NCBI RefSeq assembly: GCF_014644455.1
Contig: NZ_BMKS01000008.1
Coordinates: forward strand, 119,660-183,659
Length of the DNA: 64,000 nt
Reading direction: 5' to 3'
From: Caldovatus sediminis
GTDB taxonomy: Bacteria; Pseudomonadota; Alphaproteobacteria; Acetobacterales; Acetobacteraceae
The notes beneath the pieces are model-generated. The model worked only from the letters and a program-made list of their open reading frames with translations. It searched no databases and was not told where the DNA came from. Every line of letters starts with the position of its first letter. The stretch's first letter is position 1. This document shows, one piece after another, positions 6,674 through 57,089 of the stretch. The translations under genes were made by a program, and so were the position numbers.

Positions 6674-8505
6674 GCCGCGAGATCCTCCAGCATCGCCTTG
6701 ATGCGCGCCGTCACCTCGCGCAGCTCGGCATCGATCGCCTCCAGCGGCCGCGGGGCTTCGAACACGTAGAAGAAGCGGTTGAAGGGGATCTCGTAGCCGA
6801 TCTTCGTCTTCTCCTCGTCCACCCAGGCATCGGGGGCATGCGGCAGCACCTCGCGCGCCATATAGTCGGCAATGTCCTGATCGAGGGGGACGGTCTCGGT
6901 GTCGCGCAGCGCCGGGTCGGGCAGCGGCTTGCCCCTCTGCTTGCCCTTAGTGCCGAGCACGATGCGTCCCGCCTCGTCGCGCAAGGGGCGCTCGACCGTG
7001 ATCTGCCGGTAGCCGAACACCTCGTTGCGGAGGAGGCGCGAGAGCGGGGCGACCTTGACGCGCCCGCCTTCCGGCGCGGCCGGCGGCGCCTCGCCCGCGC
7101 GCAGAATGACGCGGGTCGTTTTGCCGGTGGCATCGGTGATGGTGGCGAGATCGGCCTCCGCCGCCTCGCCGAACAGGCGGGTGACGGCGGCGATGTCCTC
7201 CTCCCCCAACTCCTTGCGCTTGGCGCCGAGATTGCGCCGCATCTTCCGCCAGAAGGAGGAGGCGTCGATGAGCTGCACCAGGCCGCGCCGGTGGTCGGGC
7301 TTGTGGTTGGTCAGGATCCAGACATAGGTGGCGATGCCGGTGTTGAAGAACATGTCGGTGGGCAGCGCGATGATCGCCTCCACCAGGTCGTTCTCCAGCA
7401 CATGGCGGCGGATCTCGCTCTCGCCCGACCCCGCCGCGCCGGTGAACAGCGGCGAGCCGTTGAGCACGATGCCGATGCGGCTGCCGCCCTCCTGCGCCGG
7501 CCGCATCTTCGAGAGCAGATGCAGCAGGAACAAGAGCGAGCCGTCCGAGATGCGCGGCAGACCAGGCCCGAAGCGCCCCGCGTGGCCCAGCTGCTCGTGC
7601 TCGCGCCGCACCTCCTTCTCCACCTTCTTCCACTCCACGCCGAAGGGCGGGTTGGAGAGCATGTAATCGAACTTCTGCGTCGGGTGTCCGTCGTCCGAGA
7701 GCGTGTTGCCGGGGACGATGTTGCGCACGTCCTGGCCCTTGATGAGCATGTCCGCCTTGCAGATGGCGTAGCTCTCGTCGTTCAGCTCCTGGCCGAACAT
7801 GGTCAGCCGCGCGGCCGGGTTGTGCGCCAGCAGATGCTCGCCTGCGACGGAGAGCATGCCGCCGGTGCCGGCGGTGGGGTCATAGATGGTGCGCACCGCC
7901 GGGGTTCCGGGGGTGAGGATTTCGCTGTCCTCGATGAACAGCAGGTTGACCATCAGCTTGATGACGTCGCGCGGCGTGAAGTGCTCGCCGGCGGTCTCGT
8001 TGGAGATCTCGGCGAACTTGCGGATCAGCTCCTCGAAGGCGAGGCCCATGTCGTGGTTGCTGACGGCGGCGGGGCTCAAGTCGAAGCCGGCAAAGCGCTC
8101 GGTCACCTGGTAGAGCAGCCCGGCCTTCCGCAGCCGGTCGGTCTGCTCGGCGAAGCGGAAGCGCTCGAAGATGTCACGGACGGCGGGCGAGAAGCCCTGG
8201 ATGTAGGCGGCGAGGTTCGGCCCGATATGGTCCGGGTCGCCCATCAGCCGGGCGAGGTCGAGGGGCGAAGTGTTGGCGAAGGGCACGCCGGTGATGCGCG
8301 CGAGGAAGGGTTCCGGGTTCAGGCCCTGCCTCTCGCACTCCGCCTTCTTCGCCAGCACCTCGGCCTTGGTGGGCGCCAGCACGCAGTCGAGGCGGCGCAG
8401 CACGGTGAAGGGCAGGATGACCCGGCCGTATTCGGAAGGCTTGTAGTCGCCGCGCAGCAGATCGGCGACGGACCAGATCAGGGAGGAAAGTCCAGCATAG
8501 CTCAT
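6670..8505 (-). CDS. hsdM: Type I restriction-modification N6-adenine methyltransferase subunit
   Basis: 611 residues, first gene of the operon. It transfers methyl from SAM to adenine N6 at the site chosen by HsdS. Visible: helical HsdM N-terminal domain (MSYAGLSSLIWSVADLLRGD), SAM motif I DPTAGTGGML (about residue 208), catalytic NPPFGVEWKKVEKEV (about 283), and a C-terminus containing the conserved DTETVPLDQDI and EIPFNRFFYVF segments. The ATG at 8505 lies 90 bp downstream of the recombinase-associated gene, so the operon probably has its own promoter there, though I see no convincing -35/-10 pair. Confidence 0.95.
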   Translation of the reverse strand: MSYAGLSSLIWSVADLLRGDYKPSEYGRVILPFTVLRRLDCVLAPTKAEVLAKKAECERQGLNPEPFLARITGVPFANTSPLDLARLMGDPDHIGPNLAAYIQGFSPAVRDIFERFRFAEQTDRLRKAGLLYQVTERFAGFDLSPAAVSNHDMGLAFEELIRKFAEISNETAGEHFTPRDVIKLMVNLLFIEDSEILTPGTPAVRTIYDPTAGTGGMLSVAGEHLLAHNPAARLTMFGQELNDESYAICKADMLIKGQDVRNIVPGNTLSDDGHPTQKFDYMLSNPPFGVEWKKVEKEVRREHEQLGHAGRFGPGLPRISDGSLLFLLHLLSKMRPAQEGGSRIGIVLNGSPLFTGAAGSGESEIRRHVLENDLVEAIIALPTDMFFNTGIATYVWILTNHKPDHRRGLVQLIDASSFWRKMRRNLGAKRKELGEEDIAAVTRLFGEAAEADLATITDATGKTTRVILRAGEAPPAAPEGGRVKVAPLSRLLRNEVFGYRQITVERPLRDEAGRIVLGTKGKQRGKPLPDPALRDTETVPLDQDIADYMAREVLPHAPDAWVDEEKTKIGYEIPFNRFFYVFEAPRPLEAIDAELREVTARIKAMLEDLAA

Positions 8506-8595: not shown

Positions 8596-9036
8596 TCACC
8601 CGCGCCCCGGATCTGCGCGGCCGACCGGCACCGCCGCGCCCCTGCCGGCCAGCGCGGTCCGCTGGACCTCCCAGGCATCCGGAAGGCCGCGACGGAAGGA
8701 TGCGACGGAGAGGGCGATCGGCTCACGGCCATCGAGGATGGCTTCCACGATGTCGGGTGCGAGCAGGGTGAGGCCGAGGGTTCGGGCGACGACGCTGCGC
8801 TCCACGCTCTCCGCGGCGGCGAGCTCGCGAATCGACCCATGCCGCCCCTCCTCCAGCATCCGCCGCCACCGGAATGCCCGGGCCAGCGCCTTCACCAGCG
8901 CCGGGTCACCGCGGGTGGTCGTGACGCCCGCTGCGTCCCCGCCGGCCCGCACCGGCGCCCCATCCGGCCCGATGATCTGCTTCCGCCCGCCGCGGCGCCG
9001 GATGGTCATCGGCACCACCACCGTCACGCTGGTCAT
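8596..9036 (-). CDS. Small protein of the serine-recombinase module
   Basis: 146 residues, starting at ATG 9036, which overlaps the recombinase stop by 4 bp. It opens with MTSVTVVVPMTIRRRGGRKQ and carries a helix-turn-helix-like stretch (HGSIRELAAAESVERSVVAR) around residues 70-90 plus a C-terminal segment typical of proteins found directly after alphaproteobacterial recombinases (FRRGLPDAWEVQR). Coupling to the recombinase suggests a DNA-binding accessory or directionality role; that is inference. Confidence 0.7.
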   Translation of the reverse strand: MTSVTVVVPMTIRRRGGRKQIIGPDGAPVRAGGDAAGVTTTRGDPALVKALARAFRWRRMLEEGRHGSIRELAAAESVERSVVARTLGLTLLAPDIVEAILDGREPIALSVASFRRGLPDAWEVQRTALAGRGAAVPVGRADPGRG

Positions 9037-10372
9037 GCTGCAATCGCCTCCCGCGGCTGTTGCGCCGCCATGTCCCGGGCGAGCCCGGCGAGACCCCCCA
9101 GGTTCAGCCGGATCTCCGCCCCGCCCTCGGTGACGGTCACGCGCTCGACCAGCAGCCGAACGATCCGCTCCTGCTCGCCGGGAAACAGCTCGTCCCACAG
9201 CGGATCCAGCCGCCCGAGCGCCTCGCGCACCTCCGCCTCGGTCAGGTCCGGCGCCTCCGCCCGCGCCGCGCGCCAGGTGCCGACGACGACCTCCGGCTGG
9301 CACAGCAGCGCCCGGATCTGCGTCATCACCAGCCCCTCGATCTCCCCGGCCGGCAGGCGGCGATACGGCGCGTCGTTGGGGGCGCCCTGCAGCACGGCCT
9401 GGCTGACGTAGTAGCGGTAGAGCCGTCCCTTCTTCCGGGTGTGGGTGGGCGACATCGCCCGCCCGTCCGGCCCGAACAGCAGGCCGCGCAGCAGCGCCGG
9501 CGCCCGCTGGCGGGACTTCGCGGCGCGGGCGCGCGGGCTCTCGGCCAGGATGGCGTGCACCCGGTCCCACAGATCCCGCGGGATGATGGCGGCGTGCTCG
9601 CCGGGGTAGGATTTCCCCTTGTGCACCGCCTCGCCGAGGTAGGTGCGGTTCACCAGCAGCTTGTAGACCGCCCCCTTGTCGAAGGGCCGGCCGGTCTTGG
9701 TGACGAGGCCCTCCGCGCGCAGGATCGGCAGCAGCCGGGTGGCGGAGCCCAGCTCGGCGAAGCCCTCGAACACGCGGCGGACCGTCGCGGCGCCGGCCTC
9801 GTCCACCACCAGCCTGCGGTGCTCGACCCGGTAGCCGAGCGGGACGGGGCCGCCCATCCACATGCCCCGGGCGCGGGAGGCGGCGATCTTGTCGCGCACC
9901 CGCTCGCCGATCACCTCGCGCTCGAACTGCGCGAAGCTGAGCAGGATGTTGAGCGTCAGCCGCCCCATGCTGGTGGTGGTGTTGAAGGACTGCGTGACCG
10001 AGACGAAGGTGACCTCGTGCTGGTCGAAGGTCTGCACCAGCCTGGCGAAGTCCATCAGCGAGCGCGAGAGGCGGTCGATCTTGTAGACCACCACCACGTC
10101 GACCAGCCCGGCCTCGATGTCGGCGAGCAGCCGCTTCAGCGCGGGGCGATCGAGGGTGCCGCCCGACACGCCGCCGTCGTCGTAGCGGTCGTGCACCAGC
10201 ACCCAGCCCTCGGCGCGCTGCGAGGCGATGAAGGCCTCGCAGGCCTCGCGCTGGGCATCGAGGGTGTTGAACTCCTTGTCCAGCCCCTCGTCCGTGCTCT
10301 TGCGGGTGTAGACCGCGCAGCGCAGCTTCTTCACCGAGGGCGGCATGGCGCCGTCGGACAGCTTGCGGCGGC

Positions 10373-10376
<4 letters not shown>
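9033..10376 (-). CDS. Large serine recombinase
   Basis: 447 residues. The N-terminal resolvase/invertase catalytic domain includes RCAVYTRKSTDEG (catalytic serine in the RKS motif), DDGGVSGGTLDRPAL, YKIDRLSRSLMDF and FAQFEREVIGERVRDKI. It is followed by a Recombinase domain (about 165-300, with TYLGEAVHKGKSY) and a C-terminal region lacking an obvious cysteine zinc ribbon. Such enzymes integrate or excise elements through a covalent serine-DNA intermediate. Start ATG 10376 overlaps the stop of the DUF2924 gene by 4 bp. No tyrosine integrase is seen in the prophage at 14-53 kb, so this enzyme could be its integrase, with the hsd or QueC-like genes as cargo. That link is inference. Confidence 0.9.
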
Positions 10377-10875
<499 letters not shown>

Positions 10876-10879
<4 letters not shown>

Positions 10880-11082
10880 GCCTGTCTCCGACGAGTCGGG
10901 TCGGCATGACGGCGCTGCCGGGCGGTGGAGTGTAGGCGAACCTCTCCTCGGTCCCGGGCCCGCTCGGCGTCGCGCGCCACTCCCTCGGCAGTGCGGCTGC
11001 GCAGCCGCAGCAGGCCGGCGGCCAGGATGGCGCAGACCTCGCGGAGGTGGGGCGGGAGCGATGGGTTGGAGTGAAGCCGCAT
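10876..11082 (-). CDS. Small conserved ORF at the head of the recombinase module
   Basis: 68 residues from ATG 11082 (a start 7 codons earlier is possible). The helical core LPPHLREVCAILAAGLLRLR is followed by a polar tail (SRTAEGVARDAERARDRG). Its stop overlaps the DUF2924 start by 4 bp, the same arrangement as the next two junctions, which argues strongly that it is translated. I do not recognise a named domain. Short proteins of this style occur ahead of DUF2924-recombinase pairs in related genomes as far as I recall. Confidence 0.55.
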
Positions 11083-11403: not shown

Positions 11404-12192
11404 ATGGGCCACCAGCGCCTCGGGAAACTCCCGGCCCATCGCCTGCTCCCGGAGATCGTCAGGTATCTTCTGGATGGCGGGACGCCCACCGCCGACTTGG
11501 TCGACCAGGTGACGGAAGTTGGGCGCGACGCGCTGAGGCACGCTGTGAAGGACCCGGTCTTCATTGAGGCCCTGTGGCTGCTCGTTCGTTTGCCCCAGGC
11601 AGCCGGCTCGAGTGCCTTTGTCGACGGGTTGGCAGCCCTCGGCCTCAAGGGCAGGCCGCCCGGATCGCTCCCCGAGCTGCTCGCGGCGTTCGACTCTGCG
11701 CTCGAACGAGTGCAGCGCCGGGCGGCCGGCGGGGCGACGGATCTGGGTGAGATGGCCCGGCAGGCAGCGTTGAGTGCGCTCGCCGAGGCGCTGCAACCCC
11801 GACTGCCGGTGCTGTGGCAGCCCACGGCCGAGGACCTGCGTCACTCCGTGGCCTCGCTGCGGAGCGCCGACGCGTTCGCGGACTTGGCGCAGCGCTTCCA
11901 CTCGCGGTTCGTCGACCGTGTGATCCACTACTTCATCGACCGGAATCTCCACCGAATGATCGGCCCGGAGCGGGCGACGAAGTCGCTCAACGACGTTGAG
12001 GCCTTCAACGGCGCGATCCGTCGGCACTGCGATGAAGCATCCCTCATAATGCGCGCCTTCGCGCGAGACTGGTTGGGCAAGAATTTCTACCGCGATGGCA
12101 AGGCACTGACGCAGGACGATGTTCGTCGTTTCGCCAGCTACTCGGTGGAGAAGCTTCGCATCGAGCTTGCCCAGAGAAAGGGTACGTCGTGA
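11404..12192 (+). CDS. Unknown helical protein encoded with a QueC-like enzyme
   Basis: 262 residues, starting MGHQRLGKLPAHRL; an in-frame stop at 11398-11400 rules out a longer form. It is predicted all-alpha, with no motif I can name. The C-terminal third (VIHYFIDRNLHRMIG, LRIELAQRKG) is the most ordered-looking part. Its last codons overlap the GTG of the QueC-like gene (GTGA), so the two are translationally coupled. By position it corresponds to QatB, the uncharacterised partner of QatC in Qat antiphage systems. I cannot see clear sequence similarity, so QatB-like is inference from context. The second residue is glycine, which matters if the partner modifies an N-terminal glycine. Confidence 0.7.
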   Translation: MGHQRLGKLPAHRLLPEIVRYLLDGGTPTADLVDQVTEVGRDALRHAVKDPVFIEALWLLVRLPQAAGSSAFVDGLAALGLKGRPPGSLPELLAAFDSALERVQRRAAGGATDLGEMARQAALSALAEALQPRLPVLWQPTAEDLRHSVASLRSADAFADLAQRFHSRFVDRVIHYFIDRNLHRMIGPERATKSLNDVEAFNGAIRRHCDEASLIMRAFARDWLGKNFYRDGKALTQDDVRRFASYSVEKLRIELAQRKGTS

Positions 12193-14051
12193 GACAGTTC
12201 CAAATTGAGTGCGGAGCGGCAGCGCCGTCACGCCCAGACGCCATTGCCATGGACGTTCACGGGAAGGGCAAGAACGTCAATCTGCGCATAGACTGCATCA
12301 CGCGCACGATGCTCGCGAACGTGCCCGAGCTGCTGGTCGATCTGCTGGAGATCGCCGCCTACATCTACTGTGCGGATCAACGGCTGAGCCGGGGGACTGC
12401 TCAGCTGGCAAACTTTGGCGAGAGCTGGCGCCGCAACTTGCACTTTACGATCCCCGTGCGTGAGCCAGGGCTCTGGCAGCAGGACGAGGTCCAGCGCCTG
12501 CTCGCGGACACGCTCGGCTTCCTGTCCGACGACAGCTACTCCTTCGAATTCCGGAAGGCCACGCGACCTTTCCTGTCGCGTGACCTCTACTTCCACGACC
12601 TCATCGACGCATCCGCCGACTACGACGTAGTGTCGATGTTCTCGGGTGGCGTCGACTCATTCGCTGGCGCACTGCAGGACGCCGTCCTCCGCAACCGTTC
12701 TGTCTGCTTGGTCGGCCATTCTTCGTCGACCAAGGTGAGGAGCATACAGCAGAAGCTTGTCGAAGAGCTGAAGGCCCGCGGCCTCGAGCGCCGCATCACC
12801 TACATACCCGTTTGGGTGACTAACGAGAACGTCAGGACCAGCGACTACACACAGCGAACCCGCTCATTCCTGTTCGCATGTCTCGGCCTGGTGATTGCGC
12901 ACATGTCCGGGAAGGACAGCTTCACCTTCTACGAAAACGGCGTCGTCAGCATCAATCCACCGGTGGCCGGCGATGTCGTCGGCGGCAGGGCGACGCGAAC
13001 CACCCACCCTCGGGTCTTTCGCGGCCTCGAGGAGCTGTTCTCGACGCTCCTAGACCGGCCCATCACGATCGCGAATCCGTTGCAGTGGCTGACGAAGCGC
13101 GAGGTCACGACGCTCGTGCAGGAAGCAGGCATGGCCGAGCTCCTGGCCCTGACGAACAGCTGCACGAGGCCTCGGAGTTGGACGGCAGCGCACAAGCATT
13201 GCGGCGCCTGCTCCCAGTGCATCGACCGTCGCTTCGGCGTCTTGGCAGCTGGCCTGGGCGAACATGAGCCCGCGTTGAACTACAAGGTCGATCTCCTGAC
13301 AGCGGATCGCAGCGCCAGCGATGACCTGCGTATGGCGGTGAGCTACGTCTCTTTTTTCAGGAGGGTCGGGGCGACCTCGAAGGAGCGGTTCCTGGTCGAC
13401 TTCCCGGAAATCGTCTCCGCCATCAACTGCTTTCCAGACCTCTCGGCAGCCGAGGCCGGCGACCGGATCTACAACCTCTTTCAGCGGCAGGCGAAGGCCG
13501 TAGAGTCGGTCATCACGGCAGGTCTGAAGGAGCACGCGGCAGCGCTCTTCAGGAACGAGCTCCCGGCGGCTTCACTCCTATCCATCTCCTTCGCCCGCAA
13601 CAGCGTCGAAGCGCCGCCGCCAGCCAACTACGATTCGCAGGCGAAGGCTTTCATCGACCGGCTCGCAGCACCCGTGTTCGAGTTCGCGATCGACCAGTCC
13701 GCGAAGCAGGTGGTGTTCCGAGACGGCACCACCCTGACCGACGCGAGCTTCCGGATCGTCGAGGCACTCTTGGAGAACTTCAGGAGCGCGAAGGCGGAAG
13801 GGCGCGAGGTGCCATTTGTGCGCCCCCCCGATCTCGCCGACCGACTCGGCATCACGGAACAGTCCATGCGGACGCAGCTCACGCGGCTGAGAGACGCAAT
13901 CGAGCCTCTCGCCGTCTCGCTTGGCCTCGTCCTCGATCAGGACAGCTTCGTCGAGAACCGCCCGCGTGCGGGCTACCGGCTGAACCCGAGGCTCTGCGAG
14001 CTTTCGCTGGCCGACATCAGAGCCCCTACCCCGCGGCGAGAGGGGGGATAG
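12189..14051 (+). CDS. QueC-like PP-loop protein with C-terminal winged helix (QatC-like)
   Basis: 620 residues from GTG 12189. An N-terminal domain (1-145, with CITRTMLANVPELLVDLLEI, YIYCADQRLSRG and LHFTIPVREPGLW) is followed by a PP-loop ATP-pyrophosphatase domain with MFSGGVDSFAGAL (SGGVDS at 152-157). QueC-type zinc ligands lie at C325, C338, C341 and C344 (motif C-x12-CGAC-x2-C). QueC makes 7-cyano-7-deazaguanine; QueC relatives occur as QatC in Qat and as Cap9 in type IV CBASS defence. After about residue 515 there is an extra winged-helix domain (ADRLGITEQSMRTQLTRLRD, ending RAGYRLNP) of OmpR style. That extension, and the lack of QatA ATPase and QatD nuclease nearby, set it apart. 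Role as defence enzyme is inferred. Confidence 0.85.
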   Translation: MRQFQIECGAAAPSRPDAIAMDVHGKGKNVNLRIDCITRTMLANVPELLVDLLEIAAYIYCADQRLSRGTAQLANFGESWRRNLHFTIPVREPGLWQQDEVQRLLADTLGFLSDDSYSFEFRKATRPFLSRDLYFHDLIDASADYDVVSMFSGGVDSFAGALQDAVLRNRSVCLVGHSSSTKVRSIQQKLVEELKARGLERRITYIPVWVTNENVRTSDYTQRTRSFLFACLGLVIAHMSGKDSFTFYENGVVSINPPVAGDVVGGRATRTTHPRVFRGLEELFSTLLDRPITIANPLQWLTKREVTTLVQEAGMAELLALTNSCTRPRSWTAAHKHCGACSQCIDRRFGVLAAGLGEHEPALNYKVDLLTADRSASDDLRMAVSYVSFFRRVGATSKERFLVDFPEIVSAINCFPDLSAAEAGDRIYNLFQRQAKAVESVITAGLKEHAAALFRNELPAASLLSISFARNSVEAPPPANYDSQAKAFIDRLAAPVFEFAIDQSAKQVVFRDGTTLTDASFRIVEALLENFRSAKAEGREVPFVRPPDLADRLGITEQSMRTQLTRLRDAIEPLAVSLGLVLDQDSFVENRPRAGYRLNPRLCELSLADIRAPTPRREGG

Positions 14052-14255
14052 CGGCCGATGTCACAACGCCACGGGCCTGACGTAACAGTCAGCGGGCTCT
14101 AAGCCCGGTTTCCCGCCGTTCTCGATCGGCTCGACGTAACAAGAAAAATCGAAGCCGCGAATATCGGTTTCCCCGTAAGTGCCTGAAAATCCTCGCATCT
14201 GAAGACCGGCGGGGCATGCCCGTGCCGGTCTCTGCGAAGGATGACGGAGCGGCCC

Positions 14256-14471
14256 ATGGGGACCAAGCATCTGACCCAGTCGGAGGTGGCGCGCCGCTGG
14301 TGCCTCAGCCCGCGCACGCTGGAGCGCTGGCGCTGGCTCGGTCAGGGCCCCTGCTTCCTCAAGATCGGCGGCCGCGTCGTCTACCGCCTCGAGGACATCG
14401 AGGCGTTCGAGGCGGCGCAGCTGCGCGACGGCGCCGCGGCCGCGGCCGACACGGCGGCGCCCGCCGCCTGA
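14256..14471 (+). CDS. Excisionase-like helix-turn-helix protein
   Basis: 71 residues. TKHLTQSEVARRWCLSPRTL followed by RWRWLGQGPCFLKIGG and VYRLEDIEAFE is the MerR-type HTH_17/excisionase fold (helix-turn-helix, then a wing with the conserved GP-x-F/Y-x-K-x-G-x-x-VxY pattern). ATG 14256 is preferred to ATG 14241 because GGAG precedes it at good spacing. It lies first in the rightward phage early region, where a small excisionase or early regulator is expected. The 204 bp before it (14052-14255) hold nothing I recognise and could include the phage left boundary. Confidence 0.75.
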   Translation: MGTKHLTQSEVARRWCLSPRTLERWRWLGQGPCFLKIGGRVVYRLEDIEAFEAAQLRDGAAAAADTAAPAA

Positions 14472-14620
14472 TCCCACCCGGCTTCCTGCCGGGTCTTCCA
14501 GGGAATGCAACACCGCCCTCGGGCGGAAATACCTGGACGGTCCGCTCCGAACCGCGTCGGGGCCCGACAGCGTCATCCACGGCGAGAGCGGAGCGCGACG
14601 ACAGAGGAGTTGCGCTCACC

Positions 14621-14920
14621 GTGTGCAAGACCACCACGCCGCTCGACCGGCTGCGCCAGTCCTACGGGATGGCGGCGCTGCCCGACAGCATCGGGACCGA
14701 GGCCTTCGGCGAGTTCGGCCGCCCGGTCGACAAGCCGATCGCGCAGGCCACTGTCGACGACGTCGCCTTCGCCATCCAGGCGCTCAACGACGAGAGCGCC
14801 GCGCTCTACCGGCGCCTCGACGCGCTGCGCCGGCTGCACGACCACGCCCGCCGCGCCGGCGGGCTCGGCACGGCGCTCGCCGTCGAGGCGGCGCTGCGCA
14901 GCGTGGAGGCCGGCCGGTGA
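14621..14920 (+). CDS. Hypothetical phage early protein
   Basis: 99 residues from GTG 14621, with GAGGAG about 10 nt upstream. The sequence has DRLRQSYGMAALPDSIGTEA, FGRPVDKPIAQATVDDVAFA and a helical C-terminus (DESAALYRRLDALRRLHDHA). The stop overlaps the next start as GTGA. No known domain recognised. Its place immediately before the Sak4-like recombination ATPase suggests a role in phage replication or recombination. Confidence 0.65.
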   Translation: MCKTTTPLDRLRQSYGMAALPDSIGTEAFGEFGRPVDKPIAQATVDDVAFAIQALNDESAALYRRLDALRRLHDHARRAGGLGTALAVEAALRSVEAGR

Positions 14921-15831
14921 GCGCGCCCTTCACGCAGAGCCCACCCGGCGGCTTCCGGATCATCACCGCCGACCAGCGCCTGGCCGAGCGCCGCGGCATC
15001 AAGGGCGTGCTCGCCGGCGGCTCGGGCATCGGCAAGACCAGCCAGCTCTGGACGCTGGACGCGGCCAGCACGCTGTTCGTGAACCTCGAGGCGGGCGAGC
15101 TCGCCGTGCAGGGATGGCCCGGCGACGAGGTCCGCGTGCGCGACTGGGACCTCGCCCGCGACCTCGCCTGCTGGATCGGCGGGCCCAACCCCGCGATGCG
15201 CGACGACCAGCCCTACGGCGCCGCGCACTTTGCCCGCGTCTGCGCCGCCTTCGGCGCCCCGTCCGCGCTGGCGAAGTACGCGACGGTCTTCGTCGACAGC
15301 ATCACCGTCGCCTCGCGCCTCTGCCTGCAGTGGTGCAAGGGCCAGCCGCAGGCGGTCTCCGACCGCAGCGGCAAGCCCGACCTGCGCGGCGCCTACGGGC
15401 TGCTCGGCCAGGAGATGATCGCCTGGGTCACCCACCTGCAGCACACGCCGGACAAGAACGTCTGGCTGGTCGGCATCCTCGACAAGAAGCTCGACGACTT
15501 CAATCGGCCGTACTTCGCGCTGCAGATCGAGGGCACGAAGACCGGCCTCGAGCTGCCCGGCGTGGTCGACGAGCTGATCACCATGGCGGAGCTGCGCACC
15601 GAGGACGGCCGGCCGTACCGCGCCTTCGTCTGCACCACGCTGAACCCGTACGGCTACCTGGCGAAGGACCGCTCGGGCCGGCTCGACACCGTCGAGGAGC
15701 CGCACCTCGGCCGGCTGATGGAGAAGATCCGCCGCCCGCTGCCTGGGCCGCGCCTCGACTTCGCGCCGCCGCCCGCGCCGGCGCCCGCCGCCGCGACCGA
15801 CACCACCCCCGACGCGACGCAGGAGGGCTGA
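14917..15831 (+). CDS. Phage AAA/RecA-like ATPase (Sak4-like)
   Basis: 304 residues. A Walker A, AGGSGIGKTSQLW, appears near residues 34-46 and a Walker B-like hydrophobic strand, ATVFVDSIT, near 125. This is the P-loop fold annotated in phages as nucleotide-binding protein, which includes the Sak4 single-strand annealing recombinases (RecA core only). The next gene encodes an SSB-like protein, a pairing typical for Sak4 systems. The C-terminus is a proline/alanine-rich tail. Predicted to promote homologous annealing during phage replication; the exact subfamily would need a profile search. Confidence 0.75.
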   Translation: MSAPFTQSPPGGFRIITADQRLAERRGIKGVLAGGSGIGKTSQLWTLDAASTLFVNLEAGELAVQGWPGDEVRVRDWDLARDLACWIGGPNPAMRDDQPYGAAHFARVCAAFGAPSALAKYATVFVDSITVASRLCLQWCKGQPQAVSDRSGKPDLRGAYGLLGQEMIAWVTHLQHTPDKNVWLVGILDKKLDDFNRPYFALQIEGTKTGLELPGVVDELITMAELRTEDGRPYRAFVCTTLNPYGYLAKDRSGRLDTVEEPHLGRLMEKIRRPLPGPRLDFAPPPAPAPAAATDTTPDATQEG

Positions 15832-15834
15832 GCC

Positions 15835-16491
15835 ATGTCCGGCACCAACCCGCTCGACTACAACGGCGCCGACGCCCAGTCCGCCGCCTTCGACCTCCTC
15901 CCGGCCGGCACCCTGGTCCGGGTGCGGCTCACCATTCGCCCCGGCGGCGCCGGGCCGGAGGGCTGGCTCACCCAGAGCAGGACCTCGGAGGCGCAGTACC
16001 TCAACACCGAGGCCGTGGTGCTGGAGGGGCCGCACGCCCGGCGGCGCATCTACACCCGCATCGGCATCCGCGGCAAAGGCGGCCAGGGCGCGGACGACAC
16101 CTACGCGAACCGCGGCCGGGCGCTGATCCGCGGCATCCTGGAGAGCGCCCGCGGCGTCGAGGCCAAGGACACCTCCGAGCGGGCGCGGGCGGCGCGCACG
16201 ATCCGCGGCTACGGCGACCTGAACGGCCTCGAGTTCCTGGCCAAGGTCGGCGTCGAGAAGGACCAGAAGGACCCGCGGGACGAGGGGCGCAACGTCGTCG
16301 CCGCGGCGATCGGCCCCGAGCACGCCGAGTACGCCCGGCTGATGGGCGGCGGCGCGTCGGCGGGCGTCGCGACGCCGCCCGCGCTCCCCGCCGCCGCCGC
16401 GAGCGCCGCCCCGCCCTGGGCCGCGGCGCAGCCGCCCCAGCCCGCGGCGACCGCCGCCGGCGCCGGCGCGCCCCCCTTCTGGGCGCGCTGA
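15835..16491 (+). CDS. Phage SSB-like protein
   Basis: 218 residues. The body (residues 18-150) has a beta-rich core, FDLLPAGTLVRVRLTIRPGG, EAQYLNTEAVVLEGPHARRR, and an alpha-helical part. The C-terminal 60 residues are an alanine/proline linker ending GAPPFWAR, which resembles the disordered tail plus hydrophobic tip of single-stranded-DNA-binding proteins. It starts 4 nt after the Sak4-like stop and precedes a helicase. Function in ssDNA binding is inferred from neighbourhood and architecture. Confidence 0.6.
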   Translation: MSGTNPLDYNGADAQSAAFDLLPAGTLVRVRLTIRPGGAGPEGWLTQSRTSEAQYLNTEAVVLEGPHARRRIYTRIGIRGKGGQGADDTYANRGRALIRGILESARGVEAKDTSERARAARTIRGYGDLNGLEFLAKVGVEKDQKDPRDEGRNVVAAAIGPEHAEYARLMGGGASAGVATPPALPAAAASAAPPWAAAQPPQPAATAAGAGAPPFWAR

Positions 16492-16509
16492 GCGGGAGGG
16501 AGGTCGGCC

Positions 16510-18198
16510 ATGATCCCGCGCGACTACCAGCGGGCGGCGGTCGCCGCCGCCCGCGCCAAGACCGCGGCGCACGGCAACACGCTGGTCGCCCTGCCGGTCG
16601 GCGCCGGCAAGACCGCCGTCGCCGGCTTCTACATCGCCGAGGAGGCGGCGGCAAAGCCCGGCGCCCGCTTCCTCGTGCTGCAGCACACGGACGAGCTCAT
16701 CGAGCAGAACCGCGCCACCATCGGTCGGGTCGCGGGCCTGCCCGCCTCGGTGGTGAAGGCCGAGCGGGACGACTGGTCCGGCCAGGTGGTGTTCGGCAGC
16801 GTGCAGACCCTGGCCCGCTCCGCGCGGCGCGCCCGCATGGGGCAGGTCTCGCACCTCGTCATCGACGAGTGCCACCGCGCCGCCGCGGACAGCTACCAGG
16901 CGATCATCGCCGACGCCCGCGCCGCGAACCCGAACCTGAAGCTGCTCGGCCTCTCGGCCACCCCCGAGCGGGGGGACGGCCGCAGCCTGCGCCGCACCTT
17001 CTCCAACGTCGCCTTCCACCTGCCGATCGCGGCGCTGATCGCTCAGGGCATCCTGGTGCCGCCGCGCACCTTCACCATCGACCTCGGCGTCGCCGACGAC
17101 CTGGAGCGCGTGGGCGCCAGCGCCGGCGACTTCGACATGGACGCGGCGGCCAGGGTGCTGAACCGCGCGGTGGTGAACGAGGCCGTCGTGGCGCACTGGC
17201 GCGAACGCGCCGGCGACCGCCGCACCATCGCCTTCTGCGCCACCGTCGCCCATGCCGAGGCGGTCGCCGCGGCTTTCCGTGCTGCGGGGATCACCGCCGA
17301 GACCGTCACCGGCGAGATGCCGGCGAAGGAGCGCGCGGCGCTGCTCGCCCGCTTCGACCGCGGCGAGGTGCAGGTGATCACCAACTGCATGGTGCTGACC
17401 GAGGGCTTCGACAGCCAGCCGGTCGGCTGCATCGTCGTCCTTCGCCCCATGCTCCACCGCGGCACCTTCGTCCAGGCGATCGGCCGCGGCCTGCGCAAGG
17501 TGGACCCGGAGCGCTTCCCCGGCGTGGTGAAGACCGACTGCGTCGTGCTCGACTTCGCCGGCGCCGCGCTGCGCCACGGCTGCATCGAGCACGACGGCAC
17601 CCTGGCAGAGGAGGAGGACCCCGGGCCCGGTCAGGCGCCCTACAAGACCTGCCCGGACTGCGCGGCGGAAGTGCCGCTCGGCACCGTCGCCTGCCCGTTC
17701 TGCGGCCACGTCTGGCAGCGCAAGCTGCGCGAGAGGCGCCCGCTGCAGCGCTTCGGGCTGACCGAGATCGACCTGCTGGACCGCTCGCCCTTCCGCTGGT
17801 GGGACATGCACGGCGACGGCCACGCCATGATCGCCTCCGGCTTCGACGCCTGGGCCGGGGTGTTCTTCGACGGCGAGCGGCACTGGCACGCGGTCGGCAA
17901 GGTCCGCCAGGGGCGGCTGCGGCACCTCGGCGTGGGCGAGCGCGCGCAGGTCCTGGCCGGGGCCGACGACTTCCTGCGCCAGGCGGAGACCAGCGCCGCC
18001 GCCACCAAGAGCCGGCTGTGGCTGAACCACCCCGCCAGCCCGCGCCAGCGCGAGCTGCTGGTCAAGGCCGGGGACGCCGATCCGGGGCTGGACTTCGGCC
18101 TGTCGAAATACGCGGCGAACTGCCGGCTGAACTTCCTCTGGCACCGGCAGCAGATCCTGGCCGCGGTCTTCCCGAACGGCATCGCGAGGGCAGCATGA
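16510..18198 (+). CDS. SF2 DECH-box helicase
   Basis: 562 residues. It begins IPRDYQRAAVAAARAK (Q-like motif), then Walker A PVGAGKTAVAGF (about residues 27-38), DECH box VIDECHRAAADS (about 117-128), motif III LSATPERGDG, and motif VI AIGRGLRKV in a second RecA domain. A CPDC/CPFC zinc ribbon follows at about 381-399. The C-terminal part (DIDLLDRSPFRWWDMHGDG region onward) is a domain commonly attached to phage UvsW/SSL2-like helicases. Likely unwinds replication or recombination intermediates. A start with GGGAGG 8-10 nt upstream supports ATG 16510. Confidence 0.9.
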   Translation: MIPRDYQRAAVAAARAKTAAHGNTLVALPVGAGKTAVAGFYIAEEAAAKPGARFLVLQHTDELIEQNRATIGRVAGLPASVVKAERDDWSGQVVFGSVQTLARSARRARMGQVSHLVIDECHRAAADSYQAIIADARAANPNLKLLGLSATPERGDGRSLRRTFSNVAFHLPIAALIAQGILVPPRTFTIDLGVADDLERVGASAGDFDMDAAARVLNRAVVNEAVVAHWRERAGDRRTIAFCATVAHAEAVAAAFRAAGITAETVTGEMPAKERAALLARFDRGEVQVITNCMVLTEGFDSQPVGCIVVLRPMLHRGTFVQAIGRGLRKVDPERFPGVVKTDCVVLDFAGAALRHGCIEHDGTLAEEEDPGPGQAPYKTCPDCAAEVPLGTVACPFCGHVWQRKLRERRPLQRFGLTEIDLLDRSPFRWWDMHGDGHAMIASGFDAWAGVFFDGERHWHAVGKVRQGRLRHLGVGERAQVLAGADDFLRQAETSAAATKSRLWLNHPASPRQRELLVKAGDADPGLDFGLSKYAANCRLNFLWHRQQILAAVFPNGIARAA

Positions 18199-18213
18199 GC
18201 GGGGAGCACGACC

Positions 18214-18588
18214 ATGTCCCTGGCGCCCGCGCCCCGCTCGCTCTGCGCCGTCTGCCGGCGGCCGGAGCGCGGCTTCGGCTGGTTCGACCCGATCTCCTCG
18301 AAGCCGCCGCGGCCTTCTGCGTCATTCTGCTCCATCACCTGCCAGGCGTGGTGGACGCTGTTGGCGAGGCGCTGCATCGCCATGGTTGACCTCACCGAGC
18401 AGGAGCGCGCCGCCCTCCGCGCCGCGATGCGCGCGATGGCCGAGGTGATGGCCGAGATCGGCTGGAGCACCGCGCTGAACGCGCTTTCGGAGCAGCAGGT
18501 GCTGACGCTGGCGGAGGTCGCGGTCGGCGCCTTCCAGGACGCGATGCGCGCCTCCGCCTCCCCCTCGTCGCCGGAGGTGCCGTTCTGA
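18214..18588 (+). CDS. DUF6511-type phage protein with N-terminal zinc motif
   Basis: 124 residues, ATG 18214 with GGGGAG upstream. The first 50 residues hold four cysteines (CAVCRRPERGFGWF then FCSITCQAW), a likely treble-clef zinc knuckle. The rest is a helical segment, MVDLTEQERAALRAAMRAMA and WSTALNALSEQQVLTLAEV, which I associate with DUF6511 proteins of alphaproteobacterial phages. It ends with the acidic EVPF tip. The stop overlaps the ATG of the nuclease gene by one base. Function unknown. Confidence 0.7.
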   Translation: MSLAPAPRSLCAVCRRPERGFGWFDPISSKPPRPSASFCSITCQAWWTLLARRCIAMVDLTEQERAALRAAMRAMAEVMAEIGWSTALNALSEQQVLTLAEVAVGAFQDAMRASASPSSPEVPF

Positions 18589-19349
18589 TGGCGGAGCCCG
18601 GTCTCGACTTCAACCACCGCCCGAAGCCGCCGACGCCGGCGGAGGCGATCAACGCGCTGATCGACGCGGCCCTGGTGGCGGAGAACGGCACCCGGCCGCG
18701 CCGGGAGTACCTCGGCGGCTCCCGGCTCGGCGATCCCTGCGCGCGGCGGCTGCAGTACGAGCTCCTCGACGTCCCCCGCGACCCGGAGACCGCCTTCTCG
18801 GGCCAGACGCTGCGGATCTTCGCGGTGGGGCACGTCTTCGAGGACCTCGCCATCGGCTGGCTCCGCCGCGCCGGCTTCGACCTCCGCACCCGCAGCCGCG
18901 CCGGCGAGCAGTTCGGCTTCTCCGTCGCCGGCGGGCGCGTGCAGGGGCACATCGACGGCGTGGTCGTTGCGGTCCCCACACCGGCGCAGGGCGTGGTCGC
19001 CGTGCCGGCGCTGTGGGAGTGCAAGTCGGCCAACGCCCGGAACTGGAAGGAGATGGTCCGGCGCGGCGTCGCCGCGGCCAAGCCGATCTACGCGGCGCAA
19101 ATCGCCCTCTACCAGGCGTATATGGGCCTGACCGACGCGCCGGCCCTGTTCACCGCGGTGAACAAGGACACCAGCGAGCTTTACCACGAGTTGGTGCCCT
19201 TCGACGGGGCGCTGGCCCAGGCCACCAGTGACAAGGCGGTGCGCGTCCTGCGGGCCTGCGACGCCGGCGAGTGGCTGCCGCGCGTCGCGGGCGAGCCCGA
19301 GCACCTCGAGTGCGTCCGCTGCCCCTGGCGCAGGCGGTGCTGGTCGTGA
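18588..19349 (+). CDS. Cas4-like PD-(D/E)XK exonuclease
   Basis: 253 residues. The catalytic core shows GHIDGVVV (the D of the motif, about residue 121) and LWECKSAN (E-x-K, about 143). A cysteine at 51 (GDPCARRLQYE) together with C242, C245 and C251 (CVRCPWRRRC) makes the four-cysteine iron-sulfur cluster layout of Cas4/AddB-type nucleases. In phages these act as recombination exonucleases with annealing proteins such as the Sak4-like gene upstream. No CRISPR array or cas1/cas2 is nearby, so a CRISPR role is unlikely. The 3-prime end overlaps the primase start (GTGA). Confidence 0.8.
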   Translation: MAEPGLDFNHRPKPPTPAEAINALIDAALVAENGTRPRREYLGGSRLGDPCARRLQYELLDVPRDPETAFSGQTLRIFAVGHVFEDLAIGWLRRAGFDLRTRSRAGEQFGFSVAGGRVQGHIDGVVVAVPTPAQGVVAVPALWECKSANARNWKEMVRRGVAAAKPIYAAQIALYQAYMGLTDAPALFTAVNKDTSELYHELVPFDGALAQATSDKAVRVLRACDAGEWLPRVAGEPEHLECVRCPWRRRCWS

Positions 19350-21742
19350 GCGCCGCCGAGGTGATGCCGCCCATGCCGGTCGCCCCCGATCCCGCGATGG
19401 TCGCGGCCTATGCCGACATGGTCTTCGGCTGGTGCGAGGGCTGGGTCGCGGTCCGCGCGCTGGCCGAGAAGGGTGGGCCCGACCGCGCGCCGCACACGCC
19501 CTTCCTGTCGGCCGATGCCGATCTGCCGGCGAAGCTCGCCGTGCAGGCGCAGTGGGCCGCCGAGGCGGGCATGGCGCTCTACGTCATCCCCGGCACGGTC
19601 GCCGCGCCCGGCCAGGCCAGCGCCGAGCACGTCACGCAGATGCAGGTGGTGCTGGTCGACCTGGACGGCGGTGACATCGCTGCAAAGCGAGCGCACCTCC
19701 TCCAGCACCTCGGCCCGCCCAGCCTCGAGGTCGCCTCGGGCGGCGTCACGCCGGAGGGGCAGGAGAAGCTCCACCTCTACTGGCGGCTGACCGAGCCGGC
19801 CACCGGCGAGGACCTGGCGACGGTGTGCCGGCTGCGCCACGCGATCGCCGCGAAGGTCGGCGGCGATCCGGCCTTCCGCTCGGCGCACCAGCCGATCCGC
19901 GTCGCCGGCTCCGTCCACGCGAAAGGTGGCCTGAAGCGCCTCGTGGCGATCCGCCCCGCCAGCGGTCCTGATCGCGACCTGACCGAATTCGCCGAGGCGG
20001 TGCTGGCGATGCCGCCACTGCCGGGGGTCGGGGCCGAGGCGGCGTCCGATGGCAGGGATGACCCGCTGGACTTCAACGGCGCGAGCGCCGGCCGCGGTGA
20101 CGTCACCGAGCTCTTCGGCCAGCAGGTGCGCGAGGGCGGCGCCGATGGCGTCACCCGCTTCGAGGCCCTCTCCCGCATCATCGGCTACTGGATCCGCCGC
20201 CGCCAGGACGGCTTCGTCACCGCGGCCCAGGCCTGGCAGGAGATCCAGGACTACAACGCCGCCCGGATAACCCCGCCCTGGCCCGAGGACCGCTTGCGCC
20301 GGGAGGCGGAACGGCTGTGGCGCAGGGCAGAGGCGAGCCACGTCGGCCCGGACGCCGCCGACCTTGAACATGACGAAGGCGGCGGTGCCGGCTCCGGCGA
20401 TGATGGCCTACTACCGATCGGCTTCACCGAGGACGCGCTCGCCGCCGAGTTCAGCGCCCTGCATGGCGAGGACTGGCGCCACGTCGCGGTCTGGGGCGCC
20501 TGGCTCACCTGGACCGGATGCCGCTGGGAGCGCGAGGGCACGCTGCGCGCCTTCGATCTGGCCCGCCGCGTCTGCCGCGCCGCCGCCAACCGCGCGAACA
20601 ACGCCAGGGTCCGGACGAAGCTCTCACAGGCCTCGACGGTCGCCGCCGTCGAGCGCCTGGCGCGCGCCGATCGCCGCCACGCCACCACCCCCGAGGTCTG
20701 GGACTGCGACCCCTGGCTGCTCAACACCCCGACGGGCGTCGTGGATTTGCGCAGTGGCGCGCTCGCCCCGCACGACCGCGCCCTCGGCATGACCAGGATC
20801 ACCGCCGCCGCGCCGGGCGGCGACTGCCCGGCCTGGCTCGCCTTCCTCGCTCAGGTGACGGGCGGCGACGCCGAGCTGCAGGCCTATCTCCGGAGGGTGG
20901 TCGGCTACGCGCTCACCGGCGTCACCACCGAGCACGCGCTGTTCTTCCTCTACGGCACCGGCGCGAACGGCAAGTCGGTCTTCGCCAACACGCTGACGGC
21001 CCTGCTCGGCGATTACGCCACGGTCGCGCCGATGGACATGTTCATGGCGACCACCGGCGATCGCCACCCGACCGACATGGCCGGGCTGCGCGGCGCCCGC
21101 ATCGTCACCTCGATCGAGACCGAGCAGGGCAGCCGGTGGGCCGAGAGCAAGCTGAAGGCACTCACCGGCGGCGACCGCATCACCGCGCGCTTCATGCGAC
21201 AGGACTTCTTCGAGTTCACCCCGCAGTTCAAGCTGCTGGTCGCGGGCAACCACAAGCCCTCCATCCGCAACGTCGACGAGGCGATGCGGCGGCGGCTGCA
21301 CATGGTGCCGTTCACGATCACGATCCCTCCCGCCCGGCGCGACAAGCGGCTGCCGGAGCGGCTGCTGGCCGAGCGCGACGGCATCCTCGCCTGGGCGCTG
21401 CAGGGCTGTCTTGAGTGGCAGCGGGTCGGCCTCCGCCCCCCGGCGACCGTCCTGGCGGCCACCGACGAGTACTTCGAGGCCGAGGACGCCTTCGGGCGCT
21501 GGATCGAGGAGTGCTGCGAGCGTGGCAGCCAGCATTGCGAGGCGACCGCAGCGCTCTACGCGTCATGGAAGGCGTGGGCCGAGGCCAGCGGCGAGTTCGT
21601 CGGCTCGATCAAGCGCTTCTCGCAGACGCTCATCGCGCGCGGCTTCGCACCCCATCGCACCAGCACGCTCCGCTCCTTCATCGGGCTCCGTCTCCGCGAA
21701 CCCATCGCGGGCGTCCCGTCCTCCAACAGCATGGAGTTCTGA
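19346..21742 (+). CDS. Phage D5-type primase-helicase
   Basis: 798 residues from GTG 19346. The N-terminal half contains a RepB-like/AEP-type primase region (VVLVDLDGGDIAAKRAHLLQ with acidic residues; RSAHQPIRVAGSVHAKGGLK). The C-terminal half is a poxvirus D5/P4-type superfamily 3 helicase: D5_N-like LTWTGCRWEREGTLRAFDLA, Walker A YGTGANGKSVFAN (about 535-547), sensor region KLLVAGNHKPSIRN, then a C-terminal wing FGRWIEECCERG. It primes and unwinds the phage origin. Possible origin-like repeats start immediately downstream (21780-21876). Confidence 0.9.
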   Translation: MSAAEVMPPMPVAPDPAMVAAYADMVFGWCEGWVAVRALAEKGGPDRAPHTPFLSADADLPAKLAVQAQWAAEAGMALYVIPGTVAAPGQASAEHVTQMQVVLVDLDGGDIAAKRAHLLQHLGPPSLEVASGGVTPEGQEKLHLYWRLTEPATGEDLATVCRLRHAIAAKVGGDPAFRSAHQPIRVAGSVHAKGGLKRLVAIRPASGPDRDLTEFAEAVLAMPPLPGVGAEAASDGRDDPLDFNGASAGRGDVTELFGQQVREGGADGVTRFEALSRIIGYWIRRRQDGFVTAAQAWQEIQDYNAARITPPWPEDRLRREAERLWRRAEASHVGPDAADLEHDEGGGAGSGDDGLLPIGFTEDALAAEFSALHGEDWRHVAVWGAWLTWTGCRWEREGTLRAFDLARRVCRAAANRANNARVRTKLSQASTVAAVERLARADRRHATTPEVWDCDPWLLNTPTGVVDLRSGALAPHDRALGMTRITAAAPGGDCPAWLAFLAQVTGGDAELQAYLRRVVGYALTGVTTEHALFFLYGTGANGKSVFANTLTALLGDYATVAPMDMFMATTGDRHPTDMAGLRGARIVTSIETEQGSRWAESKLKALTGGDRITARFMRQDFFEFTPQFKLLVAGNHKPSIRNVDEAMRRRLHMVPFTITIPPARRDKRLPERLLAERDGILAWALQGCLEWQRVGLRPPATVLAATDEYFEAEDAFGRWIEECCERGSQHCEATAALYASWKAWAEASGEFVGSIKRFSQTLIARGFAPHRTSTLRSFIGLRLREPIAGVPSSNSMEF

Positions 21743-21745
21743 CCC

Positions 21746-22360
21746 ATGGCACCACCGTCCCGGGCAGGGATGACCGGTTGTGACGGATTGACGCGTCACT
21801 CACCCATTGATGCTCCACGCGCGCGCGTGCGCGCGCACGTGACGGGGATTTCCGGAGCCAACGTCATTTGCGTCACGGGCGGCAGCAGGCCGACCCGAAC
21901 CCTGCTCGCCCTCGACCTCGGCAGCACCCTCGGCTGGGCGGTGCGGCTGCCCGACGGCAGCATCACCTCCGGCACCGCCGCCTTCCGGCCCGGCCGCTTC
22001 GAGGGCGGTGGCATGGGCTGGCTGCGCTTCTGCCGGTGGCTCGACGACATGGCCGCCTCCGCCGGCCCGCTCGGCAGCGTCGTCTTCGAGGAGGTGCGGC
22101 GCCACGCCGGCACCACCGCCGCCCATGTCTATGGGGGTTTCCTCGCGCATCTGACCGCCTGGTGCGAAGGCGCCGGCGTCCCCTACCAGGGCGTTCCGGT
22201 CGGCACGATCAAGCGCTTCGCCACCGGCAAGGGCAATGCGCCGAAGGAGGCGGTGATCGCCGCCATGCGGGCCCGCGGCTTCGCCCCGCACGATGACAAC
22301 GAGGCGGACGCGCTGGCCCTGCTGCTGTGGGCGATCGACGCCCGGGGCGGTGCCCAGTGA
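21746..22360 (+). CDS. RuvC-like Holliday junction resolvase
   Basis: Up to 204 residues. The conserved domain starts at about residue 53 with LLALDLGSTLGWAV, the first RuvC/RNase H-fold aspartate. It continues with VVFEEVRRHAGTTAAHVYGG, VPYQGVPVGTIKRFATGKGN (phage RuvC pattern, K before the G-K/N) and ends NEADALALLLWA (last acidic pair). The N-terminal 50 residues are non-conserved-looking and overlie repeats and an alternating purine-pyrimidine tract, so the true start may be GTG 21839. Resolves branched DNA before packaging. Its stop overlaps the following GTG. Confidence 0.85.
   Translation: MAPPSRAGMTGCDGLTRHSPIDAPRARVRAHVTGISGANVICVTGGSRPTRTLLALDLGSTLGWAVRLPDGSITSGTAAFRPGRFEGGGMGWLRFCRWLDDMAASAGPLGSVVFEEVRRHAGTTAAHVYGGFLAHLTAWCEGAGVPYQGVPVGTIKRFATGKGNAPKEAVIAAMRARGFAPHDDNEADALALLLWAIDARGGAQ
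21780..21876. repeat. Repeated GTGACG hexamers with alternating (CG) tract: possible origin
   Basis: Four copies of GTGACG in both orientations lie within 97 bp: 21780-21785 and 21794-21799 (an inverted pair with 8-nt spacer), 21839-21844, and 21871-21876 (inverted). Between them, 21816-21841 is a perfect 26-bp run of alternating pyrimidine-purine, mostly CG/CA, which is prone to Z-DNA. The block lies just after the primase-helicase gene. Iteron-like repeats there are common at phage origins, but this is inference; they could also be regulator sites for the downstream gene. Confidence 0.4.
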
Positions 22361-57055: not shown

Positions 57056-57058
57056 TGC

Positions 57059-57089
57059 ATACGTCTTGTATACCGCTCGAATACCGTAT
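57059..57089. promoter_or_regulatory. Probable GntR operator cluster
   Basis: Two palindromes: ATAC-gtctt-GTAT at 57059-57071 and ATAC-c-GTAT at 57081-57089. Related half-sites in tandem, 4 bp from the gntR start codon on one side and 200 bp before livH on the other. The FCD family often binds TNGT-n-ACNA-like palindromes; these resemble but do not equal that consensus. Confidence 0.45.

What the first reader, a model, noticed from the sequence alone, without database searches (positions are those of the whole stretch)
11404..14051. Two-gene QueC-like locus with a winged-helix extension: candidate undescribed defence system
Seen: a helical protein beginning Met-Gly is translationally coupled (GTGA) to a 620-residue protein with SGGVDS (152-157), QueC zinc cysteines (325, 338, 341, 344) and an added C-terminal OmpR-like winged helix. 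Known: QueC relatives serve as QatC in Qat and Cap9 in type IV CBASS; from memory, such enzymes have been reported to conjugate a deazapurine to a partner protein's N-terminus. No QatA ATPase, QatD nuclease or CD-NTase is here. Inference: a minimal QatBC-like pair, its wHTH possibly sensing DNA or regulating the operon. It sits between a serine recombinase and phage early genes, and near a type I R-M operon.
Basis: partly seen in the sequence, partly recalled or inferred. Interest (0 to 1): 0.85.

Follow-up and report, generated by a model that had tools for sequence, protein, structure and literature searches.

The report
Prophage switch built from Qat proteins
A prophage (a virus genome lying inside a bacterial genome) carries two genes akin to a bacterial antiviral system called Qat, one clearly by sequence and one by predicted shape, at the spot where related prophages carry predicted repressor genes, so the pair is likely a new kind of on/off switch for the virus.

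Summary

"Defence system" is not the best reading. The pair sits between the integrase module and early genes of a prophage lineage. Of 155 loci with both modules, the 59 with the pair lack the CapH/CapP-like and 411-aa/wHTH modules (one remote HTH hit); 78 of 96 without the pair carry one (dereplicated Fisher 1.6e-9). Behind P2 lie direct repeats of TGTCACAA spaced 22 and 54 bp: two or more in 65 of 89 pair loci, 0 of 40 controls. P1's start, MGHxRL, is near-invariant.

Best explanation: P2's winged helix binds these repeats and controls the phage early genes; P1's N-terminal glycine is the likely substrate of the QueC-like domain. Direction of control and chemistry are untested; 11 of 37 host genomes lack recognisable QueC and QueD, which argues against a deazaguanine substrate.

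The parts
11404..12192 (+). P1: 262-aa helical protein, predicted QatB fold, begins MGHQRLGKLP
11404..11433 (+). conserved N-terminal motif MGHxRLGxLP; G2 is the predicted modification site
   Evidence: 111 of 120 listed homologues (query included) begin MGH, 7 more have it after an upstream extension, 2 are fragments; 32 of 32 viral loci with a complete 5' end; Leptospira relative MGHERLG
12189..14051 (+). P2: 620-aa QatC-family protein with C-terminal winged helix, GTG start overlapping the P1 stop
   Evidence: PADLOC QatC 2e-55; NCBIfam QatC 204.9 bits, below cut-off 280; Foldseek QatC 9y01_B E 4.9e-19
12615..13268 (+). QueC-like ATP-binding core of P2 (about residues 143-360) with SGGVDS, RTRSFLF, TRTTHP and C325/C338/C341/C344
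13674..13991 (+). predicted OmpR/PhoB-type winged helix of P2 (residues 496-601)
14059..14066 (+). direct repeat 1, TGTCACAA (exact)
14081..14088 (+). direct repeat 2, CGTAACAG (3 mismatches, at the conserved distance of 22)
   Evidence: letters; placed by the 22/54 spacing and the motif position
14135..14142 (+). direct repeat 3, CGTAACAA (2 mismatches, 54 bp further), upstream of a conserved box resembling a -10
14241..14471 (+). HTH_17 excisionase/regulator-like gene, first of the early genes behind the repeats
   Evidence: Pfam HTH_17 3.8e-8; phrog_66 excisionase and transcriptional regulator 1.1e-8
14932..22360 (+). phage early genes: Sak4-like, helicase, Cas4-type exonuclease, primase, RuvC-like
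9033..10951 (-). integration module: serine recombinase and DUF2924 gene (10373-10951)
   Evidence: Pfam Resolvase 3.4e-40, DUF2924 6.2e-53

Best explanation
The pair encodes a predicted QatB-fold protein (P1) and a QatC-family protein with a predicted OmpR/PhoB-type winged helix (P2), and it is likely the prophage's own transcriptional switch, in which the winged helix would bind phased direct repeats that lie directly behind its gene, ahead of the phage early genes. Shown by sequence: the gene pair, its place between integration module and early genes, its exclusion of other repressor-type modules, and the repeats with their spacing. Inferred: P2 binds the repeats; in the lysogen a P1-P2 complex keeps the early promoter off; P2 attaches a small adduct to the N-terminal glycine of P1 at the cost of ATP, and this state sets whether the complex holds or releases the DNA. 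The adduct need not be a deazaguanine. Whether the resting state represses or activates is not known; repression is my choice because the slot otherwise often holds CapH/CapP-like repressor modules.
Against: No experiment: DNA binding, direction of control and modification are all inferred. In the window only repeat 1 is exact; repeats 2 and 3 have 3 and 2 mismatches. Of 48 full-length loci 4 have no site at one mismatch and 10 only one. Shuffle P values of single loci with other repeats are modest: 0.01 to 0.035 for L051, L053, L098, L102, L103, but 0.16 L113, 0.19 L105, 0.20 L099, 0.59 L100, and 0.66 to 1.0 for L049, L050, L052, L093, L101, L109. P1 is not recognised as QatB by HMM or by plain Foldseek (no match at 1e-3), and hhalign to one QatB gives 26% probability. 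PHROGs files relatives of P2 (phrog_1550, 6.3e-16) under moron and auxiliary genes. The Leptospira relative carries a DpnII/MboI nuclease domain instead of the winged helix, so the family is not only regulatory. QatBC alone protects E. coli from lambda (PMC13279940), so an immune role is not excluded. CapH/CapP also control defence operons (PMC13373217), so the slot is not proof of lysogeny control; 18 of 96 loci without the pair carry none of the tested modules. Loci come from homology scans and share ancestry.
Confidence: 0.62

Rival explanations
1. A minimal QatBC defence (or superinfection-exclusion) module carried as prophage cargo; the winged helix senses DNA or only regulates the module itself.
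For: QatBC without QatA/QatD suffices against lambda in E. coli (PMC13279940, parts 1-3 of 6 read); the Leptospira relative ends in a nuclease-type domain; PHROGs lists relatives of P2 as moron/auxiliary genes; a type I R-M operon lies nearby.
Against: Place and exclusion of repressor-type modules; the repeats lie behind P2 ahead of the early genes and not ahead of P1 (0 of 60 dereplicated loci with two or more sites in the 350 bp before P1), which does not look like self-regulation of the pair's promoter.
Confidence: 0.2
2. The pair is a phage regulator, but an activator of the early genes (PhoB-like, with repeat 3 at the -35 position) switched on by infection or induction, not a repressor.
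For: Repeat 3 ends 17 bp before a conserved CATATc box, so it would sit where a -35 is expected (consensus of 36 sequences, window included); PhoP-type domains bind direct repeats (PMC4832192, start of abstract in the listing).
Against: The slot otherwise often holds CapH/CapP-like repressor modules, and no HTH_3 or S24 match was found on the contig.
Confidence: 0.15
3. Housekeeping queuosine enzyme with a neighbour of unrelated function.
For: P2 reaches the Pfam QueC cut-off (33.7 against 22 bits).
Against: 24.4 bits against 150.3 for canonical QueC; the genome has its own QueC (C2:414405-415055); phage location and pairing with P1.
Confidence: 0.01

Closest known systems
QatB-QatC of qatABCD (PMC13279940)
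   Same: QatC core, ATP loop, TRT pair in the substrate loop, four zinc cysteines; partner of QatB fold with Met-Gly start; QatB gene directly before QatC
   Different: winged helix added to QatC; P1 has about 14 residues before its first predicted helix where P. aeruginosa QatB has a tail of 65; motif MGHxRLG instead of MGTS; no QatA, no QatD; phage early-gene slot with repeats behind it
Cap9 of type IV CBASS (PMC11996544, abstract seen; PMC13279940)
   Same: QueC-type domain acting with a partner protein that begins Met-Gly
   Different: partner is a CD-NTase there; Cap9 keeps the Tyr/Asp pocket for CDG, P2 has Thr-Arg-Thr; Cap9 lacks the extensions and the winged helix
CapH/CapP and ImmR/ImmA (PMC13373217 and PMC10233336, passages seen)
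   Same: two-gene control module; CapH/CapP-like genes occupy the same slot in sister prophages
   Different: HTH repressor plus metalloprotease there; here a QueC-type enzyme carries the winged helix and the partner is its likely substrate
CapK/CapS (PMC13373217, passages seen)
   Same: enzyme-plus-wHTH two-gene controller of an adjacent operon
   Different: kinase and STAS-wHTH there; other chemistry and folds
OmpR/PhoB-family regulators
   Same: winged-helix fold (predicted) and phased direct repeats
   Different: no receiver domain; [quoted passage not shown]

Membership tests
Qat (qatABCD) | QatC core with SGGxDS, RxRxxxF, HP after TRT, P(x)4TK and zinc cysteines | tested here: met
Qat (qatABCD) | NCBIfam QatC equivalog cut-off | tested here: not met
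   204.9 bits against 280
Qat (qatABCD) | QatB-fold partner encoded next to QatC | tested here: met
Qat (qatABCD) | QatB MGTS motif and long disordered N-terminal tail | tested here: not met
   MGHxRLG; first predicted helix at residue 15
Qat (qatABCD) | QatA ATPase and QatD nuclease in the operon | tested here: not met
   0 of 108 pair loci (fetched stretches only) at E 1e-3 with three QatA and three QatD queries
Qat (qatABCD) | protects against phage | not testable with these tools
   -
Type IV CBASS (Cap9) | CD-NTase partner and Tyr/Asp CDG pocket | tested here: not met
   P1 has a predicted QatB fold; Thr269-Arg-Thr271 invariant in 15 P2 relatives
canonical QueC | TIGR00364 cut-off | tested here: not met
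   24.4 bits against 150.3
OmpR/PhoB-type DNA-binding regulators | winged-helix fold | tested here: met
OmpR/PhoB-type DNA-binding regulators | phased direct-repeat sites near a promoter | tested here: met
   repeats and spacing; promoter activity and binding not tested
phage lysogeny-control module | place between integrase and early genes, exclusive of other repressor modules | tested here: met
phage lysogeny-control module | represses early genes, confers immunity | not testable with these tools
N-terminal deazaguanylation (NDG) pairs | CDG available in the host | tested here: inconclusive
   own genome has QueC and QueD; of 37 host genomes (37 of 54 genome loci were given) 19 have QueC over cut-off, 21 QueD, 11 neither; completeness of these genomes not told

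The most novel reading that the evidence does not exclude
A class of temperate-phage genetic switches that works by ATP-dependent modification of a partner's N-terminal glycine rather than by proteolysis: a QatC-type ligase carries its own PhoB-type DNA-binding domain, modifies a compact QatB-type partner with a substrate that is not the deazaguanine of the queuosine pathway, and thereby locks or frees the early promoter. On this view the Qat antiviral system and the phage switch share one ancestral module with exchangeable C-termini (winged helices, a DpnII-type nuclease).
Probability: 0.35. Interest if true: 0.95.

Novelty: new variant of a known kind. Interest (0 to 1): 0.84.

Why it matters
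What QatC does to QatB, and how that stops phages, is stated as an open question in PMC13279940. Here the same kind of pair sits in phages, joined to a DNA-binding-type domain with candidate sites next to it, so its activity could be read as simple reporter output. I found no paper on a QatC with a winged helix or on QatBC in lysogeny control (searches; some listings were capped, preprints and most subscription journals are not held). The pair occurs in IMG/VR contigs, but P1 has no match in the 50,697 phage records searched, so no deposited phage isolate there seems to carry it.

Tried and rejected
Decayed Qat locus: rejected; no QatA/QatD relative in the fetched stretches of 108 pair loci, and the pair persists between relatives whose P1 are only 20-27% identical to the Leptospira one. 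Random defence cargo: weakened. Self-regulation: two or more TGTCACAA sites ahead of P1 in 0 of 60 dereplicated loci. P1 as QatB by sequence: nothing in PADLOC, Pfam, NCBIfam, and no QatB among PDB sequences at E 10; the one PHROGs match (0.0088) is of unknown function. Plain Foldseek for P1: no match at 1e-3; only VIA-align sets QatB apart.

Bias to keep in mind: the genome scan and one viral scan used the N-terminal motif itself among or as the search patterns, so conservation of MGHxRL in those loci is partly by selection. Support free of that is the viral scan with internal patterns (32 of 32 complete, 4 cut by the contig end), the protein search and the Leptospira locus, found through QatC. 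Locus sets overlap (for example L058 and L126 are one contig), hence the dereplicated tests. Loci L091 and L115-L125 were not (own genome; contigs already held). ORFs were picked by length and codon-position GC, so small or frameshifted neighbours may be missed. Some loci have P2 split or cut short (L016, L020, L025, L029, L032, L073), and no sites were found where their P2 piece ends.

An error in one script stopped it midway; redid it.

Full report
WHAT IS THERE. The two ORFs are as described: P1, 11404-12192, and P2, 12189-14051, sharing GTGA. P2 matches QatC in PADLOC (2e-55, residues 44-375) and NCBIfam (204.9 bits, under the equivalog cut-off of 280), and is far from canonical QueC (24.4 against 150.3 bits). 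PHROGs puts its relatives in a QueC-like family filed under moron and auxiliary genes (phrog_1550, 6.3e-16). P1 matches no family in PADLOC, Pfam or NCBIfam.

RESIDUES. In 15 relatives (55-80% identical to P2) D63, SGGxDS, R223-R225-F229, T269-R270-T271-T272-H273-P274, T302-K303 and C325/C338/C341/C344 are invariant (positions in the window's P2). By the alignment the TRT pair falls on QatC's TRTTHP, and so on the T278/T280 that PMC13279940 (parts 1-3 of 6 read) reports as invariant and needed for defence, in place of the Tyr/Asp that holds CDG in QueC and Cap9.

N-TERMINUS. Of 120 listed P1 homologues, query included, 111 begin MGH, 7 more have the motif after an upstream extension and 2 are fragments. 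In 32 of 32 viral loci with complete 5' ends, fetched with internal patterns, the motif is MGHxRL (4 more are cut by the contig end). A relative on a Leptospira noguchii plasmid, found through QatC, begins MGHERLG although it is only 20-27% identical to the other members of that alignment. In QatB the motif is MGTS, and G2D abolishes defence (PMC13279940). The conserved Gly2 of P1 is thus a likely acceptor; this is inference.

CONTEXT. The window holds a prophage: integration module at 9033-10951, early genes at 14241-22360, portal, head, tape measure and tail genes further on. Among 90 loci (54 from genomes, 36 viral) the pair has recognisable integration and early modules on both sides in 43, early only in 28, integration only in 5, neither in 14, of which 9 are under 9 kb long. 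Of 17 more divergent viral loci (L098-L114) 12 have the recombinase or DUF2924 beside the pair (in four the recombinase is on the pair's strand), 10 have a recognised early gene behind it, and 7 have both (L105-L107 are near-copies, and L110 is the contig of L087).

WHAT ELSE SITS IN THE SLOT. Two further viral scans, with DUF2924 and the Sak4-like protein, gave 160 loci, 106 of which hold both modules and neither P1 nor P2. Their slot often holds an XRE-type HTH gene and an M78 metalloprotease (representatives: PADLOC capH 4.9e-32, capP 6.5e-73; a second M78 family reaches capP only at 4.8e-5), and/or a 411-aa gene with a ~325-aa gene whose C-terminus resembles a winged helix (one representative at Trans_reg_C 2.8e-4, below cut-off). 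By HMM over all sets, with both modules required (recombinase or DUF2924 on one side; HTH_17, Sak4 or primase on the other), 59 loci have the pair and 96 do not. Pair loci: 0 with M78, 411-aa or wHTH genes, 1 with an XRE hit 7 kb away. Others: XRE 42, M78 45, 411-aa 59, wHTH 55, none of these 18. With one locus per recombinase group: 1 of 36 against 25 of 36 (Fisher 1.6e-9). CapH is a repressor cleaved by the ssDNA-activated protease CapP (PMC13373217, passages read), and ImmR/ImmA works alike in mobile elements (PMC10233336, passages read). That the slot modules act so in these phages is inference.

REPEATS. Between the P2 stop and HTH_17, direct repeats of TGTCACAA recur at fixed spacing. 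In 63 dereplicated loci the mean number of sites (one mismatch allowed) in 320 bp is 1.59, against 0.11 in shuffles, 0.13 on the other strand and 0.07 in random windows of the same loci; the commonest spacings are 22 (18 times) and 54 (18 times), then 53 (5), 76 (4), 21 and 55 (3 each). Ahead of HTH_17, 65 of 89 pair loci have two or more and 0 of 40 loci without the pair; dereplicated 35 of 51 against 0 of 34. With a full-length P2, 44 of 48 have at least one, 34 at least two, 17 three; with P2 cut, split or of another C-terminus, 2 of 15 have any. The window has TGTCACAA at 14059 and, at the same 22 and 54 bp, CGTAACAG at 14081 and CGTAACAA at 14135. Some other P2 lineages show other repeats at similar spacing: TGTCAGAA (L113), TCACGACTTT (L051, L053), TTTCAGCGCT (L102, L103), others less clearly or not at all; single-locus shuffle P values run from 0.01 to 1.0. 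PhoP binds 7-bp direct repeats with a 4-bp spacer (PMC4832192, start of abstract in a search listing); 22 is two such periods and 54 close to five. Repeat 3 precedes a conserved CATATc box by 17 bp (36 sequences), so it would cover a -35 position; promoter function is not tested.

OTHER REPRESSORS. Family searches of the own genome found 17 HTH_3 and 4 S24 matches, none on the window's contig C8. The contig ends with the window (window is C8:119660-183659; longest contig 183659), so the prophage may be incomplete, and other repressor families were not searched.

CHEMISTRY. The own genome has QueC and QueD. Of 37 genomes that hold a pair locus (37 of the 54 genome loci were given), 19 have QueC over the cut-off, 21 have QueD, and 11 have neither (two of these with a sub-threshold QueC of 105 and 66 bits). 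Several of the 11 hold pairs that look intact (for example L006, L012, L026, L030). If these genomes are complete, host-made CDG is unlikely to be the substrate there, which agrees with the altered pocket. Completeness was not told, so this is a pointer, not proof.

FAMILY BREADTH. The Leptospira P2 relative ends in a DpnII/MboI nuclease domain (PF18742, 1.2e-9, over cut-off), and two viral lineages (L099; L105/L109) have C-termini without a clear family. The C-terminus is exchangeable; the pair as such is not bound to one output.

JUDGEMENT. The proteins are a new variant of a known kind (QatBC). Their likely role, a switch of phage early genes, is not one I found described. I put about 0.77 on P2 regulating the early genes through the repeats in either direction, 0.62 on the switch as stated with repression in the resting state as my choice, and 0.35 on a switch that runs on N-terminal modification with a non-deazaguanine substrate.

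Noticed in passing
L225:6607-7839, L226:7806-8807, L157:7540-8514 (slot of sister prophages): An unnamed two-gene module, about 411 aa (representative: phrog_37634, unknown function) plus about 325 aa with a winged-helix-like C-terminus; the first in 59, the second in 55 of 96 loci without the pair. It may be another undescribed control module.
   Followed up: partly
L093:4072-6716: Leptospira noguchii plasmid with the same overlapping pair but a DpnII/MboI nuclease domain in place of the winged helix.
   Followed up: partly
L097:3400-7143: Rhizobium plasmid: 190-aa protein, QueC-like protein, XRE-M78 regulator and a weakly PIN-like protein (0.0028, below cut-off) in a row, a different QueC-like arrangement.
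   Followed up: no
L016, L020, L025, L029, L032, L073: P2 relatives split or cut short; broken copies described only.
   Followed up: no
window 24625-27376: Two adjacent genes that both match ParB-like and DNA-methyltransferase families (phrog_498 best).
   Followed up: no
window 57001-60000: Strong AT skew, -0.28 and -0.24 in two overlapping 2-kb windows, unlike the rest of the window.
   Followed up: no
window 5010-8505: Type I restriction-modification specificity and methyltransferase genes beside the integration module.
   Followed up: no
L188:1967-2560: A protein with sigma-70 region 2 (6e-6, over cut-off), representative of a family seen in the slot region of 37 loci.
   Followed up: no
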